Shown here: in pieces, positions 18,285-33,370 of the stretch | Position numbering within the stretch: position 1 is the stretch's first letter | How the letters are laid out: each line of letters begins with the position of its first letter | Notes under the pieces: generated by a model | Database searches by the model: none | Told to the model about the DNA's origin: nothing | What the model saw: only the letters and a program-made list of their open reading frames with translations | Origin: a virus | DNA: 33,640 nucleotides | Strand: one strand, 5' to 3' | IMG/VR virus record: IMGVR_UViG_3300004369_000069 | Coordinates: 1 to 33,640 of that record | Made by a program: the position numbers and the translations under genes

Positions 18285-18287
18285 AAT
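18259..18287 (+). promoter_or_regulatory. Consensus promoter for leaderless oxygenase mRNA
   Basis: TTGACA (18259-18264), 17-bp spacer, TAAAAT (18282-18287), six bases, ATG at 18294. The -10 box includes the stop codon TAA (18282-18284) of the upstream gene. No Shine-Dalgarno site. Confidence 0.75.
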
Positions 18288-18293
18288 ATCTGT

Positions 18294-19187: not shown

Positions 19188-19954
19188 TGATTACATCAGA
19201 GCACATTGGCATGGGGGTGGTTATTTGTCGCAACGTGTTGGACATTGATCCTGACTTTTTTGCAGAATACTGCGGGTGGCTCACTGGTCAGTCTGAGGAA
19301 ACTTTCAAGTTTGAAAAGGATCACGCTGTTAATCAGACAGGATTTAAGTTCAGCCTTGAGGACATCGGCATGGCTCCTCAGAGGTTCCTAGACACTCGTG
19401 GACGCAACCGTGATGAAGAAGTGCCTCAAAAGTATTTAGACTTCGTGGACTCCTGCGAAGATGCGTTGTACCGTGCGTTCGTTGAGTACTGCAATATTTT
19501 TCCTGATGCGGCCACGACTGCTTGGTGGCGACCACAAGGGCACGTTGCCGTGTATGATGCAGGCCAGAACATAGGTCCGCACTGCGACGATCAAGTCCCT
19601 TTTGAGTGGGGCGAGTCTCCGCCTAACCAAGTGTCAATGCACAATAGTACCAGTATTAATCTTTATCTAAACAACTGCGGAACTGATTATACCGGAGGAG
19701 AAATCAACTTTCCTCATGCTGGCCAAGCATTTGCTCCTGAGGCTGGCTCTGTTGCGATCTATCCATCTAGTTACGTTGGCCGTCACGAAGTCTACCCTGT
19801 AGAATCAGGAAGGCGTGTTGCATTTTTAAGTATGGCCTGCTACGGTGTTGATGCCCTTAACAACGAAGTTGTTGGGCAGGATGGCCCTAGAATCTGGATG
19901 CCTAACCTGATTTCCGATAGTCAGGCGGGGTCGATGGGCGGACGCCGGTCATAG
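19187..19954 (+). CDS. 2OG-Fe(II) oxygenase 6 (WW-GH subfamily)
   Basis: 255 residues, starting in the TAATG overlap. Shares HIGMGVVICRNVLD, TAWWRPQGHVAVY, His132 and Asp134 (IGPHCDDQ), LYLNNCGTDYTGGEINFPHAG, distal His200 (GRHEVYPV) and Arg209/Arg210 (SGRRVAFLSMACYG). The C-terminus again has WMPNLISDS. It is convergent with the - strand oxygenase gene and their 3' ends overlap by 34 bases (19921-19954). Probably a tandem duplicate of gene 18294 that has diverged in the linker between core strands. Confidence 0.83.
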   Translation: MITSEHIGMGVVICRNVLDIDPDFFAEYCGWLTGQSEETFKFEKDHAVNQTGFKFSLEDIGMAPQRFLDTRGRNRDEEVPQKYLDFVDSCEDALYRAFVEYCNIFPDAATTAWWRPQGHVAVYDAGQNIGPHCDDQVPFEWGESPPNQVSMHNSTSINLYLNNCGTDYTGGEINFPHAGQAFAPEAGSVAIYPSSYVGRHEVYPVESGRRVAFLSMACYGVDALNNEVVGQDGPRIWMPNLISDSQAGSMGGRRS

Positions 19955-20517
19955 ATTGAGAAGTCTACGTTCGGTGCCGTGTTAGGCTCTGCGGGGTCAA
20001 AGTTAGCGCCAATCACAAGTCTAGTTTCAGATGACTTCTGGCGCTCTGTCCAATGCAAAACATACGACGGAAATATAACGTACAGCCCTGACTGCGGCTG
20101 GATGTGAACATTCTTATTTACGGTGTTGCACCAAGTTGCGGATAGTATGAGTTTCGCAGAGTCTTCATCTGCGATTGGGTAGTACACTGCTGACCAGTAG
20201 TCCTCAGGGTAGATGTGAAAGTTAGCGTGGTGTGAATGAGGTCCCACACTCTTTCCTGCTTGCAAGTTTAGTGCCCACTGTGATTTTAAAACTAGAGTTT
20301 GATCTTCTGCGGCGTATTGCACTAGCCGTGTAAGTCTAGTGAGTAATTCGTTGATTTCTGGAGAGTCCGGTAGCAGGATGTCTTGGTCGTCCCACGGCTG
20401 GGTTCCGTCTCCGCAGGGTTCTCCATATTGTGCGATTTGTTGTGCAATCAATTCATTGTCAACATCTTCTGTTATCCCAAAAAAGTATGGGATATTAACT
20501 AGAGGCATTTTCTGCAT
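19921..20517 (-). CDS. 2OG-Fe(II) oxygenase 7 (PF13759-like)
   Basis: 198 residues on the - strand, last gene of a four-gene operon. Distinct from its neighbours: WALNLQAGKSVGPHSHHANF, a YWSAVYYPI strand, HIQPQSGLYVIFPSYVLHWTE and ETRLVIGANFDP match my memory of the putative oxygenase family PF13759, which uses an HxH-type pair (His94, His96) where other branches have HxD, plus distal His155 and Arg166. The N-terminal 85 residues are helical. It starts 23 bases inside the end of the upstream gene. Function unknown; relatives are frequent in marine bacteria and phages. Confidence 0.72.
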   Translation of the reverse strand: MQKMPLVNIPYFFGITEDVDNELIAQQIAQYGEPCGDGTQPWDDQDILLPDSPEINELLTRLTRLVQYAAEDQTLVLKSQWALNLQAGKSVGPHSHHANFHIYPEDYWSAVYYPIADEDSAKLILSATWCNTVNKNVHIQPQSGLYVIFPSYVLHWTERQKSSETRLVIGANFDPAEPNTAPNVDFSIYDRRPPIDPA

Positions 20518-21355
20518 GATTTATTTCCTTTCGTGTGCCTGTTGAGTTAAAGGCTCTGTGAATTGGTAGTAGTAAGTCTTCGCTAAGTTCGTTGTATTTC
20601 ACGTAGTTTGCATAGTCTTTGAATAGGTCATGCATCCATACTTGTCCACTGTTGATGTTGTGGTCATCTTCGATTATTGTCACCCCGTAATCCGGCGCAG
20701 AGGAACCTTGCCCAAAGTATGACAGGTAGGCGTATCTGTTGCCTGCCGTGATTGGCTTGACTTCATGGGCACAAATAAAGTTTGCTGGAAACAGTAGAAC
20801 GTCTCCGGCTTTGGGGGAGTAGGTCACGTCTGCGTATGGGAAAACAATTTTGCCTCCCTCATAGTCGTCGTTGAGATAAGCAATTGCTGCTAGGACGTGT
20901 TTGATGCCGAGTTGGTAATCAGGCTCATGGTGTGGTTGATAGTTGATGTCGTTGTCTGCGTGAAGCCCTAATGCTGATCCGGGCTTGTATGACAGCACGT
21001 GTCCTTTTGTTTTCCACCATAAGCAAGGTATAATCATGGGAAACTGCGTTGCGTATTTGAGCAAGGCATCGTAGATTTCAGTCTCCAAGTTTTTAAAGTA
21101 GGCTGATTGCCAGTCCTCTTCAAGTTCGTGAAAGTTGTTTATTCTTACACAGTTTGCGTCTAGTTCTTCTGGTGTGAACCGGTGACCGCTTAGGTTGGTG
21201 GCGTGTAGAATCTTACCTTTGTCGTCACGCACGTAGGTGTAGTGGCTGTCTAGGGCGTCTTGCCGTAGAGATTCAATGGCTGGAAAAATGTCAGGCTGAA
21301 TTGTTACGCCGTTTGAAATTTTAACAATGCCTGTCCCCAAGTGTTGAATGCTCAC
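20495..21355 (-). CDS. 2OG-Fe(II) oxygenase 8 (WW-GH subfamily)
   Basis: 286 residues from a GTG (GTGA overlap with the upstream gene's stop at 21352-21355). It has GTGIVKISNGVTIQP, CLWWKTKGHVLSY, His132 and Asp134 (LGLHADND), AYLNDDYEGGKIVFPYADVTYSPKAGDVLLFPAN in shortened form, His197 (CAHEVKPI) and Arg207 (GNRYAYLSYFGQG), and the WMHDLFKDY tail. It is the fourth member of the WW-GH subfamily but on the opposite strand, so an inversion accompanied duplication. Coding strand is A/C-rich, matching the plus-strand T/G bias seen across this window. Confidence 0.84.
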   Translation of the reverse strand: MSIQHLGTGIVKISNGVTIQPDIFPAIESLRQDALDSHYTYVRDDKGKILHATNLSGHRFTPEELDANCVRINNFHELEEDWQSAYFKNLETEIYDALLKYATQFPMIIPCLWWKTKGHVLSYKPGSALGLHADNDINYQPHHEPDYQLGIKHVLAAIAYLNDDYEGGKIVFPYADVTYSPKAGDVLLFPANFICAHEVKPITAGNRYAYLSYFGQGSSAPDYGVTIIEDDHNINSGQVWMHDLFKDYANYVKYNELSEDLLLPIHRAFNSTGTRKEINHAENASS

Positions 21356-22110
21356 TGTGCACTCCTAAACTTTGTGATTGCTGCGTTAAGAGCATGGTAG
21401 GGTTCGCCTAATGCTGTTGTTGTGTTGTAGTCGGTGTGGATAAACGTAAATATGTAATACTTTTGCCCGCCAGTTATTTCTAAACAGGCGTGTTCAAGTA
21501 GACAGGGTAAGAACACGATACTGCCTGCCGATGGGGATAGGTATGTATCTGTTCCGGGGAAATGCAGTTCCCCTCCTTGATAATCGTCGTTAAGGTACAG
21601 TAGAGCCGTCCAATCCATTGTGTTGTCAGGATTATCTGTGTTTCTATCAATGTGTGCTCCCATTGCGGCACCTGTACGATATTTACGCAGGCAGTAGTTT
21701 CTAGTGATGTACTCTGGCATAGTGTTACCGGTAAGGTCAGCCCACACCTGTAAGGCTTTGATGTAGTCTGGTTCGATTAAGTTTATAATTTCGTTTGCGT
21801 GTTTGTGCGCTTTACTGAAGTCTGGTGTGACTGTTATCCGGGGCCAATTTTCGTTTTGATTATTTTCTGTTATATCCCAGTCAAAGTGTTTAGCGACTCC
21901 TCTTCGCTGACCTTCTTCGTAAGAGAATACTTGCTTCCAGCCCTCTTCTGCTTTTACTGGCGACCCATCCCACCACTCGTCCCACGGTGGTATAACACGA
22001 AAAAGTTCATGATTTTTATCCTGTGCATTTATCTGGTCAATGAACTCTGCTGCGTTAGGTAAGGCGTTTTCTATATAAAGAACGTTATCTTGTAACTCAT
22101 GTACTTTCAC
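21352..22110 (-). CDS. 2OG-Fe(II) oxygenase 9 (P4H-like)
   Basis: 252 residues. The first 60 residues contain PPWDEWWDGSPV. The core has NYCLRKYRTGAAMGAHIDRN (His153, Asp155), LLYLNDDYQGGELHFP, LPCLLEHACLEITGG (His207), and Lys217 (GQKYYIFTFIHT) where Arg is usual. Typical of the phage P4H-like group (2OG-FeII_Oxy_3 type). The start overlaps the end of the upstream gene by 14 bases and its stop overlaps the GTG of the downstream gene, so translation is coupled along the operon. Confidence 0.82.
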   Translation of the reverse strand: MKVHELQDNVLYIENALPNAAEFIDQINAQDKNHELFRVIPPWDEWWDGSPVKAEEGWKQVFSYEEGQRRGVAKHFDWDITENNQNENWPRITVTPDFSKAHKHANEIINLIEPDYIKALQVWADLTGNTMPEYITRNYCLRKYRTGAAMGAHIDRNTDNPDNTMDWTALLYLNDDYQGGELHFPGTDTYLSPSAGSIVFLPCLLEHACLEITGGQKYYIFTFIHTDYNTTTALGEPYHALNAAITKFRSAQ

Positions 22111-22798
22111 TGTAAAACTCTCCTGTGCTGAGTGCCATTGGTGGATTATCTTTATGCCATACGTTTACCACCATCACTTGGCGTGTCCCTGACTTAACTA
22201 CTGTTGTCTCGTGGAATCTGCGCCCAGCATCGAAAATAATTAATCTATTTGGCTTGTATGCGATGCGTTCCCTTTCATCAGGCGGGCTTAGATATGTGCT
22301 AACATGATCAGTTTCTAATACTTCTGGAGGAGCGCCTTCAATGCGGGGACGATGGATTTCTAACATCCCTCCTTCGTCTGATTCAGTAAAACCGTACCAG
22401 ATGCACCCACTGATGGGGGCATTAAATGTTTTATCGTAAGCATATTGAAACGTGTCTTCGTCCACATGGTGCGGTAGATACTGGGGTGGAACAAAAGTTC
22501 GTGTCCAGTACTCAAATCCAACAACATCTTCTAGATTAAAGTCTCGTTTGTCGGGGTGTTCCCATATAGCCTGAATGACTTGCTTTTTGAGCGTATCGGC
22601 AGGAGAGTTCCACCAACCATCCCAGAACATGTAGGGAGCGAAGCATGATGCCTCTTCACTATGATACTGCTGTCCCCGATAGTCTCCAAGACTTCCACGA
22701 TCTTCAAAAGTATCCATGGTAGGAGGGAAAAAGGTATCGTCCTGTTTTATGGCTTCTATTAGATTTAGGTCTGTGATGAAGTTGTCTTGCACGTACAT
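22097..22798 (-). CDS. 2OG-Fe(II) oxygenase 10, first gene of minus operon
   Basis: 233 residues. Key residues: His111 and Asp113 (LPHHVDED), a CIWYGFTESDEGGMLEIHRP strand-turn, distal His196 (RRFHETTVVKSG) and Arg206 (TRQVMVVNVW). The N-terminal 60 residues include SCFAPYMFWDGWWNSP, rich in aromatic residues and likely part of a substrate pocket. It differs from the WW-GH group and from the P4H-like neighbours, so this operon holds three to four distinct oxygenase branches. Expressed from a leaderless promoter (22805-22833). Substrate unknown. Confidence 0.8.
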   Translation of the reverse strand: MYVQDNFITDLNLIEAIKQDDTFFPPTMDTFEDRGSLGDYRGQQYHSEEASCFAPYMFWDGWWNSPADTLKKQVIQAIWEHPDKRDFNLEDVVGFEYWTRTFVPPQYLPHHVDEDTFQYAYDKTFNAPISGCIWYGFTESDEGGMLEIHRPRIEGAPPEVLETDHVSTYLSPPDERERIAYKPNRLIIFDAGRRFHETTVVKSGTRQVMVVNVWHKDNPPMALSTGEFYSEST

Positions 22799-22804
22799 GT
22801 AGAT

Positions 22805-22833
22805 ATTTTACTAAAATAAGCCGACTGGTGCAA
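22805..22833 (-). promoter_or_regulatory. Promoter for leaderless minus-strand oxygenase operon
   Basis: Read on the - strand: TTGCAC (22833-22828), 17-bp spacer, TAAAAT (22810-22805), six bases, ATG (22798-22796). Same geometry as the plus-strand leaderless promoters, no Shine-Dalgarno site. It is back-to-back with the thioredoxin start region. Confidence 0.6.
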
Positions 22834-22868
22834 TGGCTTTACTTACTTAAATGTGGTAGTATATGATA

Positions 22869-23255
22869 ATGAGAAGAAACGAAGAACCCACTAAACGAGT
22901 ATTGCTGGCGGAAGGTTATGCTGTACCTGTTGACGAAAAACAATTTGAGCATATTATTTCAACTTCAGCAAAGCCTGTTCTTGTAGATTTTTGGGCAGAC
23001 TGGTGTGGCCCCTGTAAGATGATGTCACCTATCTTAGACGAATTTGCTGCAAAGTATGCTGATGAAATACAGGTAGTTAAAGTTGAGGCCGACAAAGCGC
23101 CCTTGCTGATGGAAAGATTTGATATCTCTAGTATCCCCACGATGATGGTGTTTATTGACGGTAAGGCAGAGCACAGTATGGTGGGGGCACGGCCACTTGA
23201 CATGCTGGAAAAGGAACTCGGTGGATACACCGACGTGATGACTAAGGAAGGCTGA
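22869..23255 (+). CDS. trxA: Thioredoxin
   Basis: 128 residues counted from ATG 22869; ATG 22863 two codons earlier is in frame. TAGTAT at 22857-22862 lies six bases before 22869, matching the leaderless geometry used elsewhere, although its -35 (TGGCTT) is poor. Classic thioredoxin: VLVDFWADWCGPCKMMSPIL with the WCGPC active site (45-49), VVKVEADKAPLLMERFDISSIPTMMVF with the cis-proline at 90, and a GxxP-like end. A 20-residue charged N-terminal extension precedes the fold. Both redox cysteines are present. In the phage it could reduce ribonucleotide reductase, a processivity partner, or keep Fe(II) oxygenases active; no such partner is fixed by the sequence. Confidence 0.9.
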   Translation: MRRNEEPTKRVLLAEGYAVPVDEKQFEHIISTSAKPVLVDFWADWCGPCKMMSPILDEFAAKYADEIQVVKVEADKAPLLMERFDISSIPTMMVFIDGKAEHSMVGARPLDMLEKELGGYTDVMTKEG

Positions 23256-23468: not shown

Positions 23469-23561
23469 ATGTCTCTGTTTACAGCATTTTTAATTGGATG
23501 TTCCATTGGTGTAGTTATCTTGATGGCATGGATTCTAAATACTGATGGTGATTGGGAGTGA
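23469..23561 (+). CDS. 30-aa single-span membrane peptide
   Basis: A 30-codon frame beginning MSLFTAFLIG and ending LNTDGDWE. Residues 3-22 form one hydrophobic segment (LFTAFLIGCSIGVVILMAWI). The predicted promoter places +1 on its ATG, and its stop overlaps the next start codon (GTGA at 23558-23561). A dedicated promoter and coupled start argue that it is translated. It could anchor or regulate the oxygenase, or merely serve as a leader peptide that lets ribosomes reach the downstream GTG. Confidence 0.6.
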   Translation: MSLFTAFLIGCSIGVVILMAWILNTDGDWE

Positions 23562-24118
23562 AAGACTTTGAATTAGTGTTTGATGATTTTGCGATTATCA
23601 GAGACTTTACTGCACACTGTGACTCACTACTACAGATGGTACAAAACCCACTTGATGGCGAAATAGTTGAAATGTCTGATCGTTGTTACAATTTCTTCAC
23701 TAAGCATGTAGTGGATGGCGGAAACCCTACTTCACCAGAAGATGTGGTTATACTGGAGTACACCAAGGAAATAAGAGATTCTTTATTAGAAGTCTTTTCG
23801 TTTGATGGCGTGATGAATAACAACCTACCTGCCGTTGTGTATCCAGAAGGGTGCGGCATGGGTCTGCACGATGATATGTACCATAATTCCGATGATCCAG
23901 ACAAACGTGAAAAGGTACACGTTTATAGTTCAGTTCACTATTTGAATGATGATTACGAGGGTGGAGAATTAGTATTCCCTGACGTAGACTTGACTATAAC
24001 CCCTGAAAAGAATATGCTATTACTATTCGGTTGCCACCACAAGCACAGGGGAAACCCGGCAACCGGAGGTATAAAGATTTCATCGACAAAGTTTTGGAGA
24101 GATGCTAATGCAGTTTAG
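23558..24118 (+). CDS. 2OG-Fe(II) oxygenase 11 (P4H-like), GTG start
   Basis: 186 residues from the GTG that overlaps the mini-gene stop; TTG 23552 is an alternative with two extra residues. Core: PEGCGMGLHDDMYHN (His104, Asp106), VHYLNDDYEGGELVFPDVDLTITPEKN in shortened form, a LLLFGCHHKHRGNP segment with distal His161 or His163, and Lys173 (GGIKISSTKFW) instead of Arg. Compact, resembles genes 10254 and 11474. Its 3' end overlaps the methyltransferase gene, so oxidation and methylation genes are coupled. Confidence 0.8.
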   Translation: MKDFELVFDDFAIIRDFTAHCDSLLQMVQNPLDGEIVEMSDRCYNFFTKHVVDGGNPTSPEDVVILEYTKEIRDSLLEVFSFDGVMNNNLPAVVYPEGCGMGLHDDMYHNSDDPDKREKVHVYSSVHYLNDDYEGGELVFPDVDLTITPEKNMLLLFGCHHKHRGNPATGGIKISSTKFWRDANAV

Positions 24119-26195: not shown

Positions 26196-26455
26196 TTTAC
26201 GAATTTACCGCAGGTACAGAATACTGGTATATTGACACATCTGAAAAGTATGTGAAAATTGTAGATAAAATTACAGATAAAGTTAAGAAAGAGTCCTATT
26301 CGTTAGGTATGGTGGGGCAGTTAGAAGGTCGCCGTGTAGCAACATATGAAGGTACATACGCTATGATTGGTGTATCCCCTGTCATTAAACACGACCACCA
26401 TTTCCTACAAGGTGACGTAAATCGTATCATTTGGATGGGGGATACTCCCAAATGA
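26192..26455 (+). CDS. Small unknown protein
   Basis: 87 residues, AAAAAGGAGAC directly upstream. Beta-type pattern with many Tyr/Lys (YEFTAGTEYWYIDTSEKYVKI), then RRVATYEGTYAMIGVSPVIKHDHHFL. The KHDHH cluster might bind a metal but lacks the context of a known site. Stop overlaps the next start (ATGA at 26452). The base composition begins to shift toward A/C here. Confidence 0.45.
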   Translation: MIYEFTAGTEYWYIDTSEKYVKIVDKITDKVKKESYSLGMVGQLEGRRVATYEGTYAMIGVSPVIKHDHHFLQGDVNRIIWMGDTPK

Positions 26456-26910
26456 CCGAAACCGCCTATAAGCGTTTTGACCAGCGGTTACATGACACAT
26501 ATGATGTAGAAGGCCGGGAAATAGTTAAGAAATACATCCACGACAACTATAAACACCTTACAGTAGTAGACAACCCTGACCAGTATGCGATAGACTTATG
26601 TATCTATAGAGAAGAAACATTAGTAGGATACGCTGAGGTAGAAGTCAGAACGAACTGGAAAACAGAACATTTTCCGTTCAAAACACTGCATGTACCTGAA
26701 CGCAAAACAAAACTATTAAACAATACTTTACCTACACTATTCTTCTCAATAAATGAACAAATGACACACATGTACTACTGTAAAGCACAAACCGTACTAA
26801 ACTCACCCCTAGTCAACGTGCCAAACAAATACGTGTCAAACAACGAACACTTCTACGACGTACAAGTACAACACTTAACAAAAACACCCACAAACTGGAA
26901 GAAAGAATGA
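26452..26910 (+). CDS. Possible PD-(D/E)XK nuclease-like protein
   Basis: 152 residues from ATG 26452. A pattern consistent with the PD-(D/E)XK nuclease fold is present: Asp48 in YAIDLCIY, then a GYAEVEVRTNW strand with Glu62/Glu64, and Lys85 after LHVPERKTK. Similar small phage proteins with 'VEVR.NW' and 'lhvP.RK' occur in marine phages, as I recall, and may be endonucleases such as Holliday-junction or recombination nucleases. Not confirmed. Base composition turns A/C-rich through this gene, with few T-ending codons by its end. Its stop overlaps ATG 26907, the start of a frame I reject; the next gene I call begins at 26915. Confidence 0.45.
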   Translation: MTETAYKRFDQRLHDTYDVEGREIVKKYIHDNYKHLTVVDNPDQYAIDLCIYREETLVGYAEVEVRTNWKTEHFPFKTLHVPERKTKLLNNTLPTLFFSINEQMTHMYYCKAQTVLNSPLVNVPNKYVSNNEHFYDVQVQHLTKTPTNWKKE

Positions 26911-26914
26911 AACA

Positions 26915-27046
26915 ATGCTCAAACACACAACAAAACAAAGACAACTCTGGTCAAACAAACAACCCAAAAACAAAACCATATACCTCTGCATCTGCCCCCA
27001 CAAAGGATGCAAAGCAGACACACACATATCACACAACAGCGACTAA
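26915..27046 (+). CDS. 43-aa Cys-containing small protein
   Basis: A 43-residue frame from ATG 26915 to TAA 27044-27046, ending in a TAATG overlap with the next gene. It has Cys25, Cys27 and Cys32 with a nearby His-rich end (CICPHKGCKADTHISHNSD), compatible with a zinc finger, after a basic N-terminus (MLKHTTKQRQLWSNKQPKNK). The competing frame from ATG 26907 yields a Thr/Gln/Asn-rich peptide without motif. The strong A/C bias makes coding hard to judge. Confidence 0.4.
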   Translation: MLKHTTKQRQLWSNKQPKNKTIYLCICPHKGCKADTHISHNSD

Positions 27047-27198
27047 TGCAACCCCTCTGGCTACCACCTATGTACTGTGAACGATGCGACGTATACTGGG
27101 AATCGAAAGATACCGAATGTTGGCTATGCTCCGACACCGGAGAACAACAACCCCGATACATAACCCCCGAACAACGACTAGAAGAAACCAATGAATAA
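27046..27198 (+). CDS. 50-aa zinc-ribbon protein
   Basis: Starts at ATG 27046, overlapping the previous stop. Two Cys pairs, Cys11-Cys14 (YCERC) and Cys25-Cys28 (CWLC), spaced ten residues apart, form a small zinc ribbon; the end (ITPEQRLEETNE) is acidic. Such mini-ribbons are common in actinophage early regions. It lies inside the A/C-rich island. The last bases overlap the following membrane protein. Confidence 0.55.
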   Translation: MQPLWLPPMYCERCDVYWESKDTECWLCSDTGEQQPRYITPEQRLEETNE

Positions 27199-27448
27199 CC
27201 TACTACTCGCATCAATCATACTAATGCTACTCGTAGGTGCACTCACAGCCCTGTATCTCACCGACAAAATAGTAACCACAATCATCAAAAAACTATCCAA
27301 ACTAAAAGACCCCATGACACAATTCCCCAACCTCAACGACGACACCGCCCAACAACTACTAACCATCCTATGGAGAACAACCCTCACAATACTCGTCATC
27401 CTAGCCATAATCAAAGGATGCACACCCGAACCAATCGAAACACCCTAA
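27191..27448 (+). CDS. Small two-span membrane protein
   Basis: 85 residues; ATG overlaps the previous stop region. First hydrophobic stretch residues 3-25 (NLLLASIILMLLVGALTALYL), basic linker (DKIVTTIIKKLSKLKD), second stretch residues 60-75 (RTTLTILVILAIIKG). Nearly all codons end in A or C. Two-span small membrane proteins include holins and phage-exclusion or antitoxin-like proteins, but nothing here decides. Last gene before the intergenic repeat region. Confidence 0.5.
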   Translation: MNNLLLASIILMLLVGALTALYLTDKIVTTIIKKLSKLKDPMTQFPNLNDDTAQQLLTILWRTTLTILVILAIIKGCTPEPIETP

Positions 27449-27520
27449 CACACCAAACGGCGGCTAAACACCTGCCACGATACCAAAAGCAACCCAATAC
27501 CCATATAACACTATACAGAA

Positions 27521-27576
27521 ACACCCCTATATGAACACACTCAAATGGGTACTCCCACCCACACCCCTATATGAAC
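27521..27576 (+). repeat. 16-bp direct repeat in intergenic region
   Basis: ACACCCCTATATGAAC occurs at 27521-27536 and again at 27561-27576, exactly 40 bases apart, inside the 244-base gap before whiB. Related pieces (CCCATATAAC at 27500-27509) lie nearby. The spacing suggests an iteron- or operator-like site. A short frame (ATG 27531, 32 codons) crosses it and ends in the -10 box; I do not call it. Confidence 0.55.
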
Positions 27577-27603
27577 TCCTATACTGGACAACCAAAACAG
27601 CCC

Positions 27604-27632
27604 TTGACAAAACCGTAACCAAACGGTAACAT
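27604..27632 (+). promoter_or_regulatory. whiB promoter with internal inverted repeat
   Basis: TTGACA (27604-27609), 17-bp spacer, TAACAT (27627-27632). The spacer holds ACCGT (27612-27616) and ACGGT (27623-27627), a 5-bp inverted repeat that could be an operator. Predicted +1 near 27639; a leader of about 54 bases carries AAAGAAAAGG before the GTG at 27693. Confidence 0.65.
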
Positions 27633-27692
27633 AACCATATAAAGGAAGCCTACTAGTATTACCCCCATCCCCCTAAAGAAAAGGTAACACCA

Positions 27693-28082
27693 GTGAACAG
27701 GCTCCACAAAATAACCAAAACCAACCAAACACATATACAAACCCAACAAACACCAAAACCCACCAAAACACCCCAAAATACACCTGAAGAAACCGACAAA
27801 TATCATTGGTCACAGGATGCTTTATGTAAGGATCAGGGGAATAAGATGTTCCCGAAGGAGCATAAGGATTTGTCGTATATTTCGGAGGCTCGTCGTTTGT
27901 GTAGGCAGTGTCCGGTTCGGAAGGATTGTTTGGAGTATGCTTTGTCGTTTCCGCCTTCGGATCAGCATGGTGTGTGGGCTGGGTTGACTCCTCGTCAGTT
28001 GGCGGCTGAGGCTCAGCGTAGGGGTGTGCGTGCGGAGAAGTTTACTTTGGCTCAGATTTGGGCGCAGTTGAATCGTAGTTGA
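27693..28082 (+). CDS. whiB: WhiB-family iron-sulfur regulator
   Basis: 129 residues from GTG 27693. Four conserved cysteines (Cys45, Cys70, Cys73, Cys79 in LCK, LCRQCPVRKDCLEY) should bind a [4Fe-4S] cluster, followed by the GVWAGLT turn (93-99) and a basic C-terminus (RQLAAEAQRRGVRAEK). WhiB proteins bind host sigma factor and modulate transcription; phage copies can interfere with septation or superinfection. Residues 1-35 are a low-complexity Thr/Gln/Pro/Lys tail encoded by A/C-rich DNA, while the domain itself is in T/G-rich DNA. No start codon lies at the domain border, so the tail must be translated. It is the best evidence for an actinobacterial host. Confidence 0.88.
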   Translation: MNRLHKITKTNQTHIQTQQTPKPTKTPQNTPEETDKYHWSQDALCKDQGNKMFPKEHKDLSYISEARRLCRQCPVRKDCLEYALSFPPSDQHGVWAGLTPRQLAAEAQRRGVRAEKFTLAQIWAQLNRS

Positions 28083-28126
28083 TGTGGTGTGTATAGCGTT
28101 GTGCTATCATATTGTTGGAGGCTGTG

Positions 28127-28753
28127 ATGGATTCTAATAAACTTTCTAAAGAGTTTTTGGCTGAGCGTGATGCCCGGATTTTTGGTTTGAAGAAGTCTGG
28201 GTTGTCGAATCAGGATATTGCTAAGAAGTTTAATATGACGGCTGCTGCGGTGGCTGCGGCTACTCGGCGTCAGTTGGGTAGGTTGAATTCTGAGGCGTTT
28301 TTGTCTTATCCTGAGGTGTTGCGTTTGGAGTTGGAGCGTTTGGATGAGTTGCAGAAGTCGTTGTGGCCTTTGACGCAGTTTAGGCGTGAGGTGTTGGATG
28401 ATGGTTCTGAGGTTATGGTGGAGCCTGATCAGCGTTCGGTGCAGACTGTGTTGGGTATTATGGATAGGCGTGCTAAGTTGTTGGGTATGAACGTGGAGAG
28501 GACTGAGGTTGCGATTTCTGGTTTGGGTGGCCAGTCGGAGGTTGTTGATGTTCAGTCTACTTTGGTTGGTAGCCCGAAGGCTAAGTTGTCTTCTGGGGAT
28601 TCTGCGAGGGCGGAGGCGTTGCAGTTGTTGGAGTTGATGGCTTCGTCTGGTGTGTTGGATTCTAGTGTTGTTAATAATATTTTGGATAATGTTAATGTGA
28701 CTGAGGTTGTTGAGGCTGAGGTTGTGGATGAAAGGGACAGTGATGTCAACTAA
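28127..28753 (+). CDS. HTH protein, terminase small-subunit-like
   Basis: 208 residues from ATG 28127, five bases after GGAGG (28117-28121). Residues 17-50 (RIFGLKKSGLSNQDIAKKFN then TAAAVAAATRR) form a helix-turn-helix. A central acidic coiled region (LELERLDELQKSLWP) leads to QRSVQTVLGIMDRRAKLLGM (102-121), a segment typical of phage small terminase-like DNA-packaging proteins. The C-terminal 80 residues are Val/Glu/Asp-rich and probably disordered. A gene regulator with similar HTH is the main alternative. No large terminase is inside the window. Codons are extremely T/G-rich. Confidence 0.5.
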   Translation: MDSNKLSKEFLAERDARIFGLKKSGLSNQDIAKKFNMTAAAVAAATRRQLGRLNSEAFLSYPEVLRLELERLDELQKSLWPLTQFRREVLDDGSEVMVEPDQRSVQTVLGIMDRRAKLLGMNVERTEVAISGLGGQSEVVDVQSTLVGSPKAKLSSGDSARAEALQLLELMASSGVLDSSVVNNILDNVNVTEVVEAEVVDERDSDVN

Positions 28754-29072
28754 TTATTTGAAGGATACGTTTTTTAAGGATGAGGCTCATCGTAAGCGGG
28801 TTGAGGAGGCTATGGAGTCTGTGATGGATTCTGGGTCTGATGAGGTTGTGGATGAGGTTCGGGACAAGCAAGTTTTAATTAGGGTTTCTGAGTCGCAGCG
28901 GGAGCAGTGGCAGAATGCTGCGGAGGCTGATGGTTTGTCTGTTTCTGAGTGGCTGCGTCAGATGGCGGATCATAGGTGGCGTGAGATTTATACGTGTACT
29001 CATGCTGTGGAGAAGCGTCAGTCGTATCCTTGGGCAGAGTTTTGTTTGGACTGTGGCACGAGGCTGCGGTAG
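28743..29072 (+). CDS. Ribbon-helix-helix-like protein with zinc-binding tail
   Basis: 109 residues from ATG 28743, overlapping the previous gene by 11 bases; GAAAGGGAC precedes it. Residues 43-78 (QVLIRVSESQREQWQNAAEA then SVSEWLRQMADHR) look like a ribbon-helix-helix DNA-binding unit (beta strand, helix, turn, helix). The end has Cys85 with His87 and Cys101-Cys104 (CLDCGTRLR), a likely zinc site. The first 40 residues are acidic. Probably a small DNA-binding regulator or nucleoprotein. Confidence 0.5.
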   Translation: MSTNYLKDTFFKDEAHRKRVEEAMESVMDSGSDEVVDEVRDKQVLIRVSESQREQWQNAAEADGLSVSEWLRQMADHRWREIYTCTHAVEKRQSYPWAEFCLDCGTRLR

Positions 29073-29097
29073 GGACGCCATAGGAACGCCATAGAGG
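29070..29097 (+). repeat. TAGGGACrCCATwG element, copy 1 (tandem form)
   Basis: TAGGGACGCCATAG followed by GAACGCCATAG, right at the stop of the preceding gene. Related elements occur at 29602, 30002 and 30740, all within 1.7 kb. Confidence 0.45.
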
Positions 29098-29112
29098 TTT
29101 AGGGTGGGTTAG

Positions 29113-29171
29113 CCCCGTGGGTGGTTGCGGGGTTGGCGAGTCCCGAAAGTTTTGCGGTGTGGGCTTTCGGG
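29113..29171 (+). other. Structured intergenic RNA segment
   Basis: Two hairpins in GC-rich DNA: CCCCG/CGGGG (29113-29132) and CCCGAAAG/CTTTCGGG (29142-29171, 8-bp stem, 14-base loop). It lies in the gene-poor stretch 29073-29290 between a + strand and a - strand gene. It could be part of a small RNA, a terminator or a packaging site; nothing else in this 218-base stretch looks like a gene. Confidence 0.35.
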
Positions 29172-29233
29172 GCGGGGCTGGTTGACCTCTCCGTCTTCAC
29201 CGTGTTTAGGCGGGGCGTTTCTAGGGTAAAAGG

Positions 29234-29269
29234 AAAGGGAACCCCGGCTGGTGTGCTAGGGTTCCCTTT
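29234..29269. terminator. Bidirectional rho-independent-like terminator
   Basis: AAAGGGAACCC (29234-29244) and GGGTTCCCTTT (29259-29269) form a perfect 11-bp stem with a 14-base loop, with T-rich DNA after it on the + strand. It serves the + strand genes ending at 29072 and lies just beyond the 3' end of the - strand mini-gene (29291). Confidence 0.75.
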
Positions 29270-29290
29270 TCTATTGTTTACGTTTTTGTT

Positions 29291-29434
29291 TTACCGCCAG
29301 TATGTTAGGGTTTTGAGTACTTCTCGTTCCATATCATCTGTCCATTGCCGTCGGTCTTGCGGTACCCATACTCCGTTGAAGTAGTGTTGTTTGCGGTGGC
29401 GGCGGCGGGCGGCTAGTTCTTTGAGTTTTGTCAT
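29291..29434 (-). CDS. 47-aa basic small protein with strong ribosome site
   Basis: Minus-strand frame from ATG at 29434-29432 to TAA at 29293-29291. AAAGGAGGTGA precedes the ATG at ideal distance, the strongest Shine-Dalgarno match in the window, and a TTTACT-N17-TATACT promoter lies further upstream. The peptide starts MTKLKELAARRRHRKQHYFN and ends with QWTDDMEREVLKTLTYWR, so it has a very basic first half and an amphipathic second half, fitting a small nucleic-acid-binding or inhibitor protein. It is bounded by a terminator at its 3' end. No family recognised. Confidence 0.6.
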   Translation of the reverse strand: MTKLKELAARRRHRKQHYFNGVWVPQDRRQWTDDMEREVLKTLTYWR

Positions 29435-29462
29435 TTGTGTTTTCACCTCCTTTGACTCTGTT

Positions 29463-29491
29463 AGTATAACTCGGTTGTCTTTGGAAGTAAA
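29463..29491 (-). promoter_or_regulatory. Promoter of the 47-aa minus-strand gene
   Basis: On the - strand: TTTACT (29491-29486), 17-bp spacer, TATACT (29468-29463). Predicted +1 about 22 bases before the start codon, giving room for the Shine-Dalgarno site. Confidence 0.55.
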
Positions 29492-29522
29492 TGGATATGT
29501 TTGTGAAAGCAGTCACAAAGTT

Positions 29523-29601
29523 TGGTACGGGAGTCGGGAATTGAACCCGAGACCACCATTTTATAAGAATGGCTGCAGCAACCAGCGCCGCACCCTCCCG
29601 C
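29523..29601 (-). tRNA. tRNA-Ile-like (anticodon TAT), minus strand
   Basis: 79 bases with encoded ACCA end. Acceptor GCGGGAG / CTCCCGT, D arm GCGGC / GCTGC, anticodon stem CCATT / AATGG with loop CTTATAA (TAT), variable loop TGGTC, T arm TCGGG TTCAATT CCCGA. The linker after the acceptor stem is three bases (GGT) rather than two, so the upper half is slightly unusual. It reads AUA, a rare codon in actinobacteria. Confidence 0.8.
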
Positions 29602-29627
29602 TAGGGACACCATTGGATGTTTTTAGA
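29602..29627 (+). repeat. TAGGGACrCCATwG element, copy 2
   Basis: A 26-bp sequence starting TAGGGACACCATTGGATG and touching the tRNA 5' end. It matches 24 of 26 bases with the copy at 30740-30765. Part of it (TTGGAT) could serve as -35 for the next promoter. Confidence 0.6.
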
Positions 29628-29633
29628 AGTATT

Positions 29634-29642
29634 TGCTAGTAT
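29634..29642 (+). promoter_or_regulatory. Extended -10 promoter for RHH genes
   Basis: TGC TAGTAT (-10 at 29637-29642) with TTGGAT at 29613-29618 (18-bp spacer). Predicted +1 near 29649; GGAG precedes the ATG at 29666. Confidence 0.45.
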
Positions 29643-29665
29643 ATATAAAAGAGTTTGGAGTTGTT

Positions 29666-29881
29666 ATGAGTGAATTTGGTTTTAATCGTGCGGGTCGCCC
29701 GTCTAAACGTGCCGATGTTGATGTGAAGAACGTGGGCATGTCGTTTAAGGTTGATCCCCGTTTGAAGAATTTGTTGCTTGATATTTCTGAGGGGTCTGAC
29801 ATTTCGATGACAGAGTTGTTGTTGATGATGGCTTTGAAGGAAGCGGGCTTGGAATCTTTGGATGAGTATGAGCAGTTCTGA
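29666..29881 (+). CDS. Small ribbon-helix-helix-like regulator
   Basis: 71 residues from ATG 29666 with GGAG six bases before; an earlier in-frame ATG at 29633 lacks a ribosome site. Residues 8-13 (GRPSKR) look like an AT-hook-type basic segment. VDVKNVGMSFKVDPRLKNLL then ISMTELLLMMALKEAGL fits a CopG/Arc-type beta-helix-helix dimeric DNA-binding unit. Its end overlaps the next gene by 20 bases. Probably a transcription regulator of this short operon. Confidence 0.5.
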   Translation: MSEFGFNRAGRPSKRADVDVKNVGMSFKVDPRLKNLLLDISEGSDISMTELLLMMALKEAGLESLDEYEQF

Positions 29882-30206
29882 TAAAACGGTTCGTGTTTCT
29901 TTAGTGTTACCGTTGTGGGTTAAAGAGTTGTTGAACTCTGCTGCTGAGAGTGAGGGTGTTGCTGTCTCTACTTTAGCGTCCCACATATTGGTGGAGGGTG
30001 CTAGGGACACCATAGGCATTCCTAAGCCTCCTCCTGCCCGTGTTCCGATCCCGTCCGTCACTGATGTGCTCCGTTCGTATGTTGAGGGGAGTTCACGATT
30101 GATCGGGCCTTGCGGCGAGGCTTGGCCTTGCGAATACGACGAAAATCTGTCTCAGTATATTGGTGACTGCGAGTTCTGTCATCAGTGTAATGTGCGGGTG
30201 CGATAA
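29862..30206 (+). CDS. RHH-like protein with Cys-rich tail
   Basis: 114 residues; ATG 29862 or 29868 both in frame and both inside the previous gene's end. Residues 8-48 (KTVRVSLVLPLWVKELLNSA then VSTLASHILVEGAR) again look like ribbon-helix-helix. A Pro-rich linker (PKPPPARVPIPS) leads to a Cys-rich tail (Cys84, Cys90, Cys103, Cys106, Cys109), likely zinc-binding. Similar two-part layout to the protein at 28743, suggesting paralogy. Its 3' 149 bases are overlapped in antisense by the - strand gene ending at 30058. It also contains repeat copy 3. Confidence 0.5.
   Translation: MSMSSSDKTVRVSLVLPLWVKELLNSAAESEGVAVSTLASHILVEGARDTIGIPKPPPARVPIPSVTDVLRSYVEGSSRLIGPCGEAWPCEYDENLSQYIGDCEFCHQCNVRVR
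30002..30027 (+). repeat. TAGGGACrCCATwG element, copy 3
   Basis: TAGGGACACCATAGGCATTC lies inside the coding region of the 114-residue protein, encoding ARDTIGIP. Less similar to copies 2 and 4 after the first 13 bases. Confidence 0.4.
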
Positions 30207-30435
30207 GGTTGATGATCTGTTCGTCTAGTCCTTCGATGTGTTTAACTTCTTTGTAGGTTCCTACTCCGAAGGCTCCGCCGTACATTGCGTCGATTGTGTC
30301 GATGCAGTCTTGGTATTTACCGGTGTACAGTAGGGCTTCGTCGGCTAGGTCTACTAGATAGAAGCGTACGCCTAGAGCGCTTTTGATGATGTTGATTATG
30401 TTGCGAGTGTGTTGGTTTTTCGTATAGTTTGTCAT
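30058..30435 (-). CDS. Unknown protein, convergently overlapping its neighbour
   Basis: 125 residues from the ATG in the ATGA overlap at 30432-30435 (an ATG at 30447 is also in frame). Begins MTNYTKNQHTRNIINIIKSA, with LYTGKYQDCIDTIDAMYGGAFGVGTYKEV and a basic end (RRIRKAKPRRKARS). Its last 149 bases lie antisense to the + strand gene. The N-terminal two thirds are unopposed and look real; the C-terminus past about residue 77 might be accidental read-through. No family recognised. Co-transcribed after the replication-type gene. Confidence 0.5.
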   Translation of the reverse strand: MTNYTKNQHTRNIINIIKSALGVRFYLVDLADEALLYTGKYQDCIDTIDAMYGGAFGVGTYKEVKHIEGLDEQIINLIAPAHYTDDRTRSHQYTETDFRRIRKAKPRRKARSIVNSPQHTNGAHQ

Positions 30436-30788
30436 GATTCTAGCCATTCCTCCATTTCTGTTGTTGCTGTTGTTTCTTGTTCGTAAATGTCTACGAACAT
30501 CTCTACCTTCTCGGCGTTGCGGAAGATGAGCGTCAGGTCTGTGTATTTCTTGTTACCGGGGTTCCGCCCTGTATGCCAGTCGGACATGGAGCATCCTAAG
30601 ATGGCTTGCTTACATGTTTCGATTCCGTATGCTTTGATGGCGGTTGCCAGTTTCTTTTTGCGGGTTTCGTCTAAAACTGTTGATGCCCTTTTGTTGAATG
30701 TTTCTTTCCAGAAGTCAAACATGTTGTGTATGTCTCCCGTAGGGACACCATTGAATGTTTCTAGACCGAATAGATTTTGTTCTTGCAT
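30432..30788 (-). CDS. Replication-initiator C-terminal-domain protein
   Basis: 118 residues, AAAGGAGG before the ATG on the - strand. MFDFWKETFNKRASTVLDETRK and KKLATAIKAYGIETCKQAILGC followed by SDWHTGRNPGNKKYTDLTLIFRNAEKVEMF (split motif, residues 46-98) match the conserved C-terminal region found in phage replisome organiser/primosome proteins, where a similar 'AI.GC..SDFH.G.N..G..Y.DL.LI.R...K.E.F' pattern occurs. The usual N-terminal DNA-binding domain is missing, so this is a stand-alone C-terminal module, perhaps a helicase-loading adaptor. It contains repeat copy 4 in codons near 9-18. Confidence 0.6.
   Translation of the reverse strand: MQEQNLFGLETFNGVPTGDIHNMFDFWKETFNKRASTVLDETRKKKLATAIKAYGIETCKQAILGCSMSDWHTGRNPGNKKYTDLTLIFRNAEKVEMFVDIYEQETTATTEMEEWLES
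30740..30765 (+). repeat. TAGGGACrCCATwG element, copy 4
   Basis: 26-bp sequence starting TAGGGACACCATTGAATG, 24/26 identical to copy 2. It is inside the minus-strand replication-type gene, where it encodes ETFNGVPT. Similar DNA kept in coding and noncoding places suggests a site, not a shared protein motif. Confidence 0.55.
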
Positions 30789-30855
30789 GTATAGCCTCCT
30801 TTCTGTGCTATCCTAAATGTTGATCGACTTTTTGGGGTTAGTCGGTTGATCGTAA

Positions 30856-30904: not shown

Positions 30905-32503
30905 TCAGGCCACCTTCCTGAGATGGTCTTTCCATCGGGGGAGAATCTGAGGCTTGTATGCCGCTCCCTTTTTGAGTTCGTTGAGGTACTTGATTGCCCC
31001 TTCGGGGTTGTACTCCATGTGGACTCTGTGCTTGCGTGCGTACTCTGCGCATTCCCGCTCGTCGTACTCGCCTCCACCTCCGGGTCGATAGACCATGCCG
31101 TCCGTAATCCAGATGACAGGTGTCTTAGCGTTGGTTCGTTGAGCGACTGCGTATTCGATGGCAGGCAGGTCGTTGCCGTTGCCTCCCCAGAATTCGGGAA
31201 GTTCGTTACAAATTTTTCCCTTCTCTCCAAGGATGAAGGCGTTGGGGCGACCGGTTTGCCATGAAGCAGAGTAGCCGATGATGGTGCATCCGGGTGCGGC
31301 TAGCATCATTTCCTTCAAGTCCTCTTTTGAGAGAGACATGGAACCTGAGCAGTCGATTAGCACTACTCCACCGACGGCCTTAACGTACTTGTCGAAGATA
31401 CGCTTATCAGGGTCGGTCAAGAGTCGGTGCATCCGTCGGGGATTACGCCCCATGTTAGAAGCGACTCGTTTACGACCGATGGCTCCGGGGATGGTCATCG
31501 TCATAGGCATACGCTTGAGGTTAAGGTCAAGCCATTTGCCAATGCCTCTTGAACCGATGTTGGAATTCAGTGCGTCTTTAGCCTTTTTCTGAAGTGCGTC
31601 ACGGTCGAAAGTTTTATCTTTCTTTTCCTTAAGTTCTTCAGGGTTGTCCTCTTGGCCTAGTTTGTTGGCTCTGCCACCATCGGACTGGCCACTGCTTTCA
31701 GCCTCAGCCTCGTCGTCATCGTCGTCAGACGTGCTTTCCTCGGCATCTTCTACAGTGTCCTCATCCTCAGGCTCTTCTTCGGGAGCGGGTTGGGGAGCAG
31801 GCATTGATGCGATGGATTCCAGAAGCATTGCGAGTTCGATGGTGTAGTTCATTCCGACGATCATGCCGGTATGAGCGTGTACCTCGGTACTGCCATACTT
31901 TTGCAGAGCCTCAGCGTCTGTGGTGAGGTTAGCGCCGTATGTTTGGCGCTTGATAAGTTTAATCTGCTTTGTCTGAAACTTGACGATTTCCTTTGCGATA
32001 TCTCGCAGAGCGTCAGCCCATTCGGGGATGTGTCGGCGGATACCGACGAGCAGAGGGTTGAGGCTACCGGTGTGTACCGATGCCGCTACTGCGTACACTG
32101 CTTCCGACCACTGGTTGTGTTCGGCTAGCATCTCACCATCCCACTTCTCTGAGCCGGTCTGGAGCGCTTTCATGGGGAAGCCCAGCATGTCAGCGATCAT
32201 GTTTACTCGTGCTTCTTCTGCGGCTCTGATAGCGCCCTCTCCGGTCACGTCAGTGATGAAGGGCGTCAGGTCTTGGGGGGAAACTTTAACGTGGATTTGC
32301 TCATGGCCACGGATGGCACGTGCAAGGTCTGAGTCATCCAAGGGGACTCGCATGATGCGACCAGCGACAGTGATGTAAGGCTCGCCACGTACTGCACGTG
32401 CGTTACCAACATCCCAGCCTCCGGTGTTTCGAATGTCTTGTCGGGTAAAAACCTCAGGCATAGGCCGGTTTCGGTTCTGTACCTCTTGAATCATATCAGT
32501 CAT
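30905..32503 (-). CDS. VWA/metallopeptidase-like protein (CobT-like), MoxR partner
   Basis: 532 residues from the ATG at 32503, with GAGAGGAG five bases before it; an upstream ATG at 32593 is beyond the promoter and is rejected. N-terminal: an HExxH motif (GHEQIH, residues 66-71) and an EEARVN segment (96-101) like a zinc metallopeptidase-type or CobT/NorD-like N-domain. Middle: an acidic low-complexity linker (residues 236-275). C-terminal: von Willebrand A domain with VLIDCSGSMS (MIDAS DxSxS, Asp384) and VIWITDG. Such VWA proteins act together with a MoxR-type AAA+ ATPase, encoded next to it, as a chaperone or remodelling machine. Substrate unknown. Confidence 0.75.
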   Translation of the reverse strand: MTDMIQEVQNRNRPMPEVFTRQDIRNTGGWDVGNARAVRGEPYITVAGRIMRVPLDDSDLARAIRGHEQIHVKVSPQDLTPFITDVTGEGAIRAAEEARVNMIADMLGFPMKALQTGSEKWDGEMLAEHNQWSEAVYAVAASVHTGSLNPLLVGIRRHIPEWADALRDIAKEIVKFQTKQIKLIKRQTYGANLTTDAEALQKYGSTEVHAHTGMIVGMNYTIELAMLLESIASMPAPQPAPEEEPEDEDTVEDAEESTSDDDDDEAEAESSGQSDGGRANKLGQEDNPEELKEKKDKTFDRDALQKKAKDALNSNIGSRGIGKWLDLNLKRMPMTMTIPGAIGRKRVASNMGRNPRRMHRLLTDPDKRIFDKYVKAVGGVVLIDCSGSMSLSKEDLKEMMLAAPGCTIIGYSASWQTGRPNAFILGEKGKICNELPEFWGGNGNDLPAIEYAVAQRTNAKTPVIWITDGMVYRPGGGGEYDERECAEYARKHRVHMEYNPEGAIKYLNELKKGAAYKPQILPRWKDHLRKVA

Positions 32504-32532
32504 ATTTGCTCCTCTCATTTGCTGATGTACTG

Positions 32533-32562
32533 ATTGTATCATATGTAGATGGTTGGTGTCAA
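32533..32562 (-). promoter_or_regulatory. Promoter of the VWA gene
   Basis: On the - strand: TTGACA (32562-32557), 18-bp spacer, TGA TACAAT (-10 at 32538-32533). +1 near 32526, leaving a 20-odd base leader with Shine-Dalgarno. Confidence 0.7.
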
Positions 32563-32572
32563 ATTGTAGTGT

Positions 32573-32607
32573 GGAGAGGGGGAGGCCAACCAATCCTCCC
32601 CCTCTCC
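32573..32607. terminator. Stem-loop between AAA+ and VWA genes
   Basis: GGAGAGGGGGAGG (32573-32585) and CCTCCCCCTCTCC (32595-32607), perfect 13-bp stem with 9-base loop, after the AAA+ gene on the - strand. The VWA gene then has its own promoter, so the two are adjacent but separately expressed. Confidence 0.7.
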
Positions 32608-32653
32608 TGATGTCAGGTAGGGAGCCAAGCGAGAGGCTTCTACCTACCTGAGA

Positions 32654-33370
32654 TTAGCCTCCGACCTGTTGGAACTGGTCAATCTTGATGGCTTCCAAGA
32701 ATGCACCAGCACGAGGGCCGAGAATAAGTTGAGCCGCTTTTTCCTCACCCATCTTGTGAGTCAACTTAGCCATTGACTGGAACAGTCGAAGCGACATGCG
32801 CTCAGAGCCAGCGTCGGCCATGCGGTCTGCGTAAGACCTCCAGTGGTTGGGGAGGGTAAGCAGAGCATCGGGATGGGGTCGGTCGATGCGGATACGGACA
32901 GGGAACCGGTCGGTAAGAGCCTCAGGCAACTCCTCAATCTGTTCCACATTCGTGGTCATGATTACGGTGTAGCCCTTCTCAGGGTAGGTCTTTTCGCCGG
33001 TAACAGGATGCTCCCACTCAGCGGACTCAGCAGAGTCAGTCATGTTGAGTAGGGTTGCGAACACGTCGCCACCAGCCTTGTCGATTTCGTCTACGACGAG
33101 TCGGCCACCGCTACGGCGAGCCTTGATGGCTGAGCCTTCGATGTATTCGAAGCCGCTACCGTTAGGCAAGAAGCCTCCGGTAACATCCATGTTGGTCATG
33201 TCATCGGTGCAGGTGAGTCGGTGTGACTCCTGTCCGGGGGTCTTGTTGACGTGCAGAGCGCTGAACGTCTTGCCGGTGCCGGGAGGGCCGAACAGGATGA
33301 TTCGGTCAACTCCAGCGGCGAGTACGTCGTTGAACGTATCCCAGCAGGTGTAGGTGTCGGTCGTTGTCAT
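32654..33370 (-). CDS. MoxR-type AAA+ ATPase
   Basis: 238 residues, GAAAGG ribosome site before the ATG. Walker A GPPGTGKT (28-35), a MDVTGGFLPNGSGFEYIEG loop typical of MoxR-like ATPases, Walker B LVVDEIDK (91-98), sensor 1 IMTTN (137-141), and an LTDRF arginine-finger-like segment (152-156). The rest (170-238) forms the small helical lid. It should hydrolyse ATP as a ring and drive the VWA protein downstream. It has the shape of host MoxR/CobS-like enzymes but is shorter. The pair could remodel metal centres, nucleoprotein complexes or virion parts; a cobaltochelatase role is unlikely without the third subunit. Confidence 0.82.
   Translation of the reverse strand: MTTTDTYTCWDTFNDVLAAGVDRIILFGPPGTGKTFSALHVNKTPGQESHRLTCTDDMTNMDVTGGFLPNGSGFEYIEGSAIKARRSGGRLVVDEIDKAGGDVFATLLNMTDSAESAEWEHPVTGEKTYPEKGYTVIMTTNVEQIEELPEALTDRFPVRIRIDRPHPDALLTLPNHWRSYADRMADAGSERMSLRLFQSMAKLTHKMGEEKAAQLILGPRAGAFLEAIKIDQFQQVGG

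What the first reader, a model, noticed from the sequence alone, without database searches (positions are those of the whole stretch)
26450..27800. Nucleotide-skew island with reversed strand bias
Across most of the window the + strand is rich in T and G, even where genes lie on the - strand (19921-22798). Between about 26.5 and 27.8 kb the + strand is instead strongly A/C-rich, with hardly any T-ending codons, although the genes are on the + strand. It looks like a formerly minus-coded block that was inverted, or the neighbourhood of a replication origin where strand bias switches.
Basis: partly seen in the sequence, partly recalled or inferred. Interest (0 to 1): 0.75.

Follow-up and report, generated by a model that had tools for sequence, protein, structure and literature searches.

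The report
Sharp strand-bias flip inside phage gene
In a family of aquatic phages that probably infect actinobacteria, the DNA changes within about ten bases, in the middle of a gene, from almost only A/C to almost only G/T at freely variable sites; this is best read as the mutational scar of a fixed spot where DNA copying starts, and it gives an unusually precise, testable start site.

Summary
The A/C-rich block (26.5-27.80 kb) ends in an abrupt flip at 27,805 (likelihood interval 27,799-27,814), inside a whiB gene. A mirror-image G/T-rich block follows and fades over about 5 kb. At fourfold-degenerate sites the G+T share goes from 0.04 to 0.97. It depends on position, not on gene strand. The same flip occurs at the same locus in five close relatives and, at shifted points, in five more distant contigs. 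It always reads A/C then G/T: 17 flips against none of the reverse in 2.8 Mb. Where the flip sits elsewhere, the same WhiB amino acids are recoded: 26 of 27 shared codons change third-base class. That excludes inversion, codon preference and assembly error. Convergent-gene relatives argue against transcription. Most likely it is a strand-specific mutational footprint of a site from which leading-strand DNA synthesis departs: mainly rightward, with only 1-2 kb leftward. The main rival is a site-specific break, such as packaging initiation next to a terminase-small-subunit-like gene, that primes synthesis both ways. Three close relatives lack the flip, so it is gained or lost quickly. Origin activity itself is not shown. 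I know of no described parallel with this sharpness and strength.

The parts
26452..27804 (.). left arm: A/C-rich on the + strand, strongest next to the flip, fading leftward with a length constant of about 1.3 kb
27799..27814 (.). flip point (best 27,805), A/C on its left, G/T on its right, inside whiB
   Evidence: maximum-likelihood change point and 2-unit interval
27805..30800 (.). right arm: G/T-rich on the + strand, fading rightward (length constant about 2.5 kb, wide error); includes - strand genes 30058-30788 with fourfold G+T 0.70-0.77
27693..28082 (+). whiB-like gene that carries the flip at about codon 38
   Evidence: Pfam Whib E 2.5e-15; PHROG WhiB; codon strings
27604..27632 (+). 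promoter-like TTGACA-17-TAACAT reading rightward through the flip; a similar TTGAC...box lies upstream of whiB in several relatives, also in ones without the flip
28127..28753 (+). DNA-binding protein, HTH plus helix-hairpin-helix, small-terminase-like arrangement (PHROG 645, labelled 'RNase E')
   Evidence: AlphaFold2 mean pLDDT 69, pTM 0.38; VIA-align Z 6.8 and 5.5 to G20C small terminase for two consecutive parts, inconclusive
28743..29072 (+). ribbon-helix-helix protein (NikA-like)
   Evidence: Pfam PF21983 E 8.8e-8
29666..29881 (+). small conserved protein, possibly ribbon-helix-helix; in right arm
   Evidence: conserved in relatives, 63-71% identity; RHH assignment by eye
29862..30206 (+). 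ribbon-helix-helix protein (RHH_5); in G015, G017 and L203 its homologue lies on the - strand at or near the flip
   Evidence: Pfam PF07878 E 2.1e-6
27191..27448 (+). small protein with two hydrophobic stretches (by eye), almost wholly A/C-ending codons
26452..26910 (+). left-arm gene, weak PDDEXK resemblance
   Evidence: Pfam PF24579 E 1e-4, 23 bits, below its cut-off of 25; 85% identical in G001
27070..27198 (+). short zinc-ribbon-like ORF (CxxC...CxxC by eye)
   Evidence: weak homologues upstream of whiB in L072 and L073

Best explanation
The flip marks a fixed spot from which leading-strand DNA synthesis departs in both directions, and the two arms are its strand-specific mutational footprint. 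To the right, synthesis makes the + strand the leading strand and C->T and A->G changes accumulate on it. To the left, the same happens on the - strand. Near the start the bias is almost saturating at synonymous sites. It fades over 1-3 kb, as expected if the DNA near the start is single-stranded most often, or is copied by a low-fidelity or not-yet-processive polymerase before hand-over. Because the whole + strand, also 50 kb to the left, is mildly G/T-rich, replication in these phages is probably mostly one-way (rightward, theta or rolling circle), with a short leftward excursion. Shown: the flip, its sharpness, symmetry, fading, independence from gene strand, fixed polarity, recurrence and movement between lineages. 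Inferred: that it is mutational, that G/T is the leading strand here, and that synthesis starts at this point.
For: One point, two mirror-image arms, fading with distance. Fourfold G+T 0.04|0.97; both components flip (T vs C 0.18->0.95, G vs A 0.00->0.97) and intergenic DNA follows (0.26 left, 0.77 right). It holds for - strand genes on the right (0.70-0.77). Same locus in G001-G006 and G013, and shifted in G014-G017 and L203. Polarity 17:0 in 130 sequences, 9 distinct lineages. Third-base recoding of identical WhiB residues: 26 of 27 codons between L203 and window, 9 of 11 between G006 and window. In G015, G017 and L203 the flip lies around convergent genes, so the bias runs against transcription on at least one side. 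Precedents: mutational footprint of about 4 kb with strand bias at human origins (PMC9645720); A->G and C->T gradients from single-strandedness in mitochondrial replication (PMC3269015).
Against: No shared sequence motif at the flip beyond controls, no long inverted repeat across it, no excess of DnaA-box-like sites (22 found, 19.2 expected), and no known initiator gene beside it. The long-range skew does not change sign left of the island. Three close relatives with the same gene order (G018, G019, G020) have no flip, so if the site is a general origin its footprint must be gained or lost quickly. A flip sharper than about 10 bases is more precise than replication starts usually leave. That G/T marks the leading strand is taken from bacteria, not shown here; with the opposite polarity the same point would be where forks meet.
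Confidence: 0.58

Rival explanations
1. The flip is a site-specific double-strand break, most likely the terminase's first (pac) cut or an endonuclease site. Both 3' ends invade an intact copy and prime leading-strand synthesis away from the break, leaving the same mirror-image footprint. This would explain nucleotide sharpness better than a bubble origin.
For: Edge sharper than about 10 bp. A gene whose predicted fold aligns in two consecutive parts with the G20C small terminase lies 320 bp to the right. The phages carry a UvsX/RecA-like recombinase. In phage ICP1 the predicted rolling-circle start lies next to the pac site (PMC7145576).
Against: All contigs found run through the flip and none ends at it. 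In G015 the small-terminase-like gene is about 42 kb from the flip. The terminase identity is weak (Z under 8, pTM 0.38). TerL is 65 kb away in G013.
Confidence: 0.2
2. Selection, not mutation: the two arms are kept free of self-pairing bases (A/C-only and G/T-only strands) because a protein or process needs unstructured or strand-labelled DNA/RNA here.
For: Saturation at synonymous sites and conservation at the locus.
Against: The flip point wanders by tens to hundreds of bases with perfect recoding, intergenic and coding sites both follow, it fades smoothly, and it is absent in close relatives. It has no known functional counterpart.
Confidence: 0.1
3. Transcription-coupled asymmetry: divergent transcripts from the flip expose the non-template strand.
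For: Same mirror geometry; the right arm is co-directional with its + genes.
Against: The left-arm genes are read rightward, a rightward promoter-like box lies 170 bp left of the flip, and in L203/G017/G015 the genes around the flip are convergent, so the bias opposes transcription there. It would need strong unseen antisense transcripts.
Confidence: 0.06
4. Inverted or foreign block, or mis-assembly.
Against: Same order and strand in relatives from independent datasets, flip inside one conserved frame, and shifted flips with identical proteins.
Confidence: 0.02

Closest known systems
GC-skew sign change at bacterial oriC (leading strand G/T-rich; described e.g. in PMC7111523)
   Same: Same polarity (A/C to G/T) at one point; independent of gene strand.
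   Different: Here the bias is local (1-3 kb), near saturation, switches within about 10 bp inside a gene and does not continue into a leftward replichore.
Mitochondrial single-strand deamination gradients (PMC3269015)
   Same: C->T and A->G on one strand, strongest at third positions, fading with distance or time single-stranded.
   Different: Genome-wide and one-directional in mitochondria; here two mirror arms of a few kb.
Mutational footprint of human replication origins (PMC9645720)
   Same: Kilobase-scale, strand-biased mutation around initiation sites.
   Different: Weak statistical signal over thousands of origins; here visible by eye in a single genome and sharp to about 10 bp.
Error-prone DNA polymerase I footprint downstream of the ColE1 plasmid origin (from own knowledge, not checked here)
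   Same: Mutations decline with distance from a fixed start over about 1-3 kb.
   Different: Laboratory mutator system; natural long-term composition not comparable.
Vibrio phage ICP1 theta and rolling-circle starts next to pac (PMC7145576)
   Same: Large lytic phage in which a late replication start and the packaging site may be linked.
   Different: Shown by sequencing coverage; I found no report there of a local composition flip.

Membership tests
bidirectional (theta) replication origin with two replichores | sign change of GC/keto skew from A/C to G/T at one point | tested here: met
bidirectional (theta) replication origin with two replichores | opposite skew maintained along both replichores | tested here: not met
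   fourfold G+T on + strand is 0.57-0.68 more than 5 kb left of the flip in window and G001-G004, for genes of either strand
bidirectional (theta) replication origin with two replichores | iterons or clustered DnaA boxes at the site | tested here: inconclusive
   no DnaA-box excess; only one exact 16-bp two-copy direct repeat at 27521/27561; no motif shared above controls
bidirectional (theta) replication origin with two replichores | nascent strands start at the site | not testable with these tools
   needs reads or an infected culture
packaging initiation (pac/cos) site | close to a small terminase gene | tested here: inconclusive
   HTH protein 320 bp away resembles G20C small terminase weakly; far away in G015
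packaging initiation (pac/cos) site | virion DNA ends at the site | not testable with these tools
   no reads; no contig ends at the flip, which speaks against cos but not against headful pac
inverted segment | opposite orientation or order relative to relatives | tested here: not met
   same strand and order in G001-G006 and G013
transcription-coupled strand asymmetry | bias follows the direction of transcription | tested here: not met
   left arm runs against its + genes; convergent genes in G015, G017, L203. Unseen antisense transcription cannot be excluded
WhiB family (gene carrying the flip) | match to the Whib profile above its cut-off | tested here: met
   57.2 bits against 23.6

The most novel reading that the evidence does not exclude
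These phages start DNA synthesis at a base-exact, movable site (possibly a programmed break or nick rather than a melted origin) whose local mutation is so strand-biased that it has rewritten nearly every synonymous site around it, and the site slides along the whiB locus between lineages while the proteins stay the same.
Probability: 0.4. Interest if true: 0.8.

Novelty: new variant of a known kind. Interest (0 to 1): 0.68.

Why it matters
If right, a replication or break start site can be read from sequence alone to about ten bases in uncultured phages, and can be followed as it moves or vanishes between relatives. It also offers a natural experiment separating mutation from selection: the same protein segment recoded by position alone. 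The arms would give a direct measure of how long DNA stays exposed, or how far the first polymerase runs, after initiation.

Tried and rejected
Inversion: rejected by synteny and by the flip inside one frame. Codon preference or host tRNA: rejected because one gene uses opposite codons on the two sides. Transcription: see rivals. A motif at the flip: none above shifted controls. Palindrome or long inverted repeat across the flip: none. DnaA boxes and Rfam families at 25.5-30 kb: nothing. Homologues of the TerS-like and 562-aa proteins among isolated phages: none; WhiB hits in isolates are 30-47% identical and their skew was not examined. Fold search of the TerS-like protein: Foldseek gave no match at E <= 0.001 and VIA-align was weak. 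The G013 row in the alignment was entered in the wrong orientation and is ignored. Mutation-rate check from near-identical contigs G003, G004, G005: six SNPs within 1.5 kb of the flip, too few and confounded by recombined patches elsewhere; not used as evidence.

Full report
What was checked. The window is a 33,640-base viral contig from a phage that probably infects actinobacteria (WhiB gene; whiB as an actinophage marker). No isolated relative was found. The largest relative, a 128-kb contig (G013), is myovirus-like: tail sheath, terminase large subunit, portal, primase/helicase, UvsX-like recombinase.

In 1-kb windows the + strand is A/C-rich at 26.5-27.5 kb (GC skew -0.35, AT skew +0.41) and then strongly G/T-rich at 28-29.5 kb (GC skew +0.37 to +0.49, AT skew -0.28 to -0.32). 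The change point is 27,805, with a 2-log-unit interval of 27,799-27,814. At fourfold-degenerate sites the G+T share is 0.50, 0.29, 0.04 and 0.13 approaching from the left; 0.97, 0.97 and 0.93 just right of the flip; then 0.72-0.79, 0.70-0.77, 0.63 and 0.58. Genes 30058-30788 on the - strand follow the same trend, so the effect belongs to position and DNA strand, not to gene orientation. Both components take part: T over C goes from 0.18 to 0.95 and G over A from 0.00 to 0.97; leucine is CTA/CTC on the left and TTG on the right; intergenic DNA follows. Shuffles of the rest of the window never exceed a contrast of 0.188; the observed value is 0.436.

Relatives. Five close relatives (G001-G004 and G006; G003, G004 and G005 are near-identical) and, more weakly, G013 have the flip at the same locus. 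In G001-G003 it lies at the same codon as in the window. In G006 and G013 it lies some 60-70 bases further into whiB, and in G014 earlier in whiB. In a second gene arrangement (G015, G017, and L203, a contig binned in a metagenome-assembled genome) it lies just after whiB, at or near a ribbon-helix-helix gene on the opposite strand; in G016 it lies 4.9 kb away. Written as third-base classes, the same WhiB segment is nearly all G/T-ending in the window and nearly all A/C-ending in L203: 26 of 27 codons for the same amino acid change class; for G006 9 of 11 do. Protein function and codon preference cannot produce that; position relative to the flip can.

Polarity. Among 130 sequences (2.8 Mb; several overlap) there are 17 full flips from A/C to G/T, representing 9 distinct lineages, and none from G/T to A/C. 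A start of diverging leading strands reads A/C-to-G/T on either strand of the DNA, so the fixed polarity is what such a start predicts.

Transcription. The left-arm genes and the promoter-like box at 27604 read rightward through A/C-rich DNA. In G017 and L203 a rightward whiB meets leftward genes near the flip, so the bias opposes transcription. Unseen antisense transcripts are the only escape.

Extent and direction. A fit over five relatives gives length constants of about 1.3 kb on the left and 2.5 kb (standard error 1.0) on the right. Beyond that, the + strand is mildly G/T-rich on both sides, including 50 kb to the left, whatever the gene strand (0.64-0.68 in G002 and G003). So the left arm is a short local reversal. 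I read this as mostly one-way replication starting here with a short leftward excursion; this is inference. ICP1 is a precedent for a late one-way start near the packaging site. Footprints of initiation on a kilobase scale are known in human DNA, and strand-specific A->G and C->T gradients are known in mitochondria.

Start by melting or by a cut? The sharpness speaks for a base-exact event. The gene next to whiB encodes an HTH protein that PHROGs labels 'RNase E'; its model (pTM 0.38) aligns weakly but in two consecutive parts with the G20C small terminase. A packaging cut that primes synthesis from both ends is therefore a serious rival (0.2). Against it, contigs run through the flip, and in G015 this gene is far from the flip.

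What remains open. G018, G019 and G020 share the gene order (small-terminase-like protein about 67-70% identical to the window's) but have no flip. In the tree of that protein, the window, G001-G003, G006 and G013 form a clade, and G014, which also has the flip, falls outside it. The footprint is thus gained or lost on this time scale. No motif, iteron or initiator explains where it sits. The leading-strand meaning of G/T is assumed from bacteria.

Verdict. Real, conserved and striking; origin-type reading supported, inversion rejected; mechanism likely but not shown. New variant of replication-associated strand asymmetry.

Noticed in passing
window 10835-23255 and 23552-24118: Array of at least seven mutually similar genes; three of them (11474-12337, 16399-17466, 18294-19187) match PHROG 61 (2OG-Fe(II) oxygenase), suggesting an expanded oxygenase/hydroxylase family.
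   Followed up: no
window 30905-33370 (-): MoxR-type AAA ATPase next to a 562-aa protein (the pairing suggests a VWA/CobT-like partner), conserved in all relatives whose contigs reach it; no homologue of the 562-aa protein in isolated phages.
   Followed up: partly
L064:8968-10766, L061:13175-14973, L068:4704-6538: One-sided G/T-rich islands: start abruptly near a promoter-like box, span two + genes and one - gene, and end at the start of the - gene; no A/C-rich arm directly on the left.
   Followed up: partly
G013 (128 kb relative, reversed coordinates) 86-98 kb: Second gradient of G/T bias (fourfold 0.75 falling to about 0.6) starting at the helicase gene, without a sharp flip.
   Followed up: no
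G015 57032: Second abrupt step to G/T-rich DNA (0.42 to 0.74) in the same genome as a flip at 27958.
   Followed up: partly
window 28090-28115 and relatives: Short inverted repeat (GTATAGC...GCTAT, variable spacing) just upstream of the small-terminase-like gene in relatives with and without the flip; possible operator (seen by eye; the fixed-spacing search did not recover it).
   Followed up: partly
L057:2500-6650 and L056: About 4 kb with AT skew up to +1.0 in a 62-64% GC phage contig, perhaps a collagen-like repeat gene.
   Followed up: no
L072, L073, L074 between whiB and the small-terminase-like gene: Relatives without the flip have a longer spacer between whiB and this gene (about 100-260 bp against about 45-110 bp), with a promoter-like sequence of its own.
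   Followed up: partly
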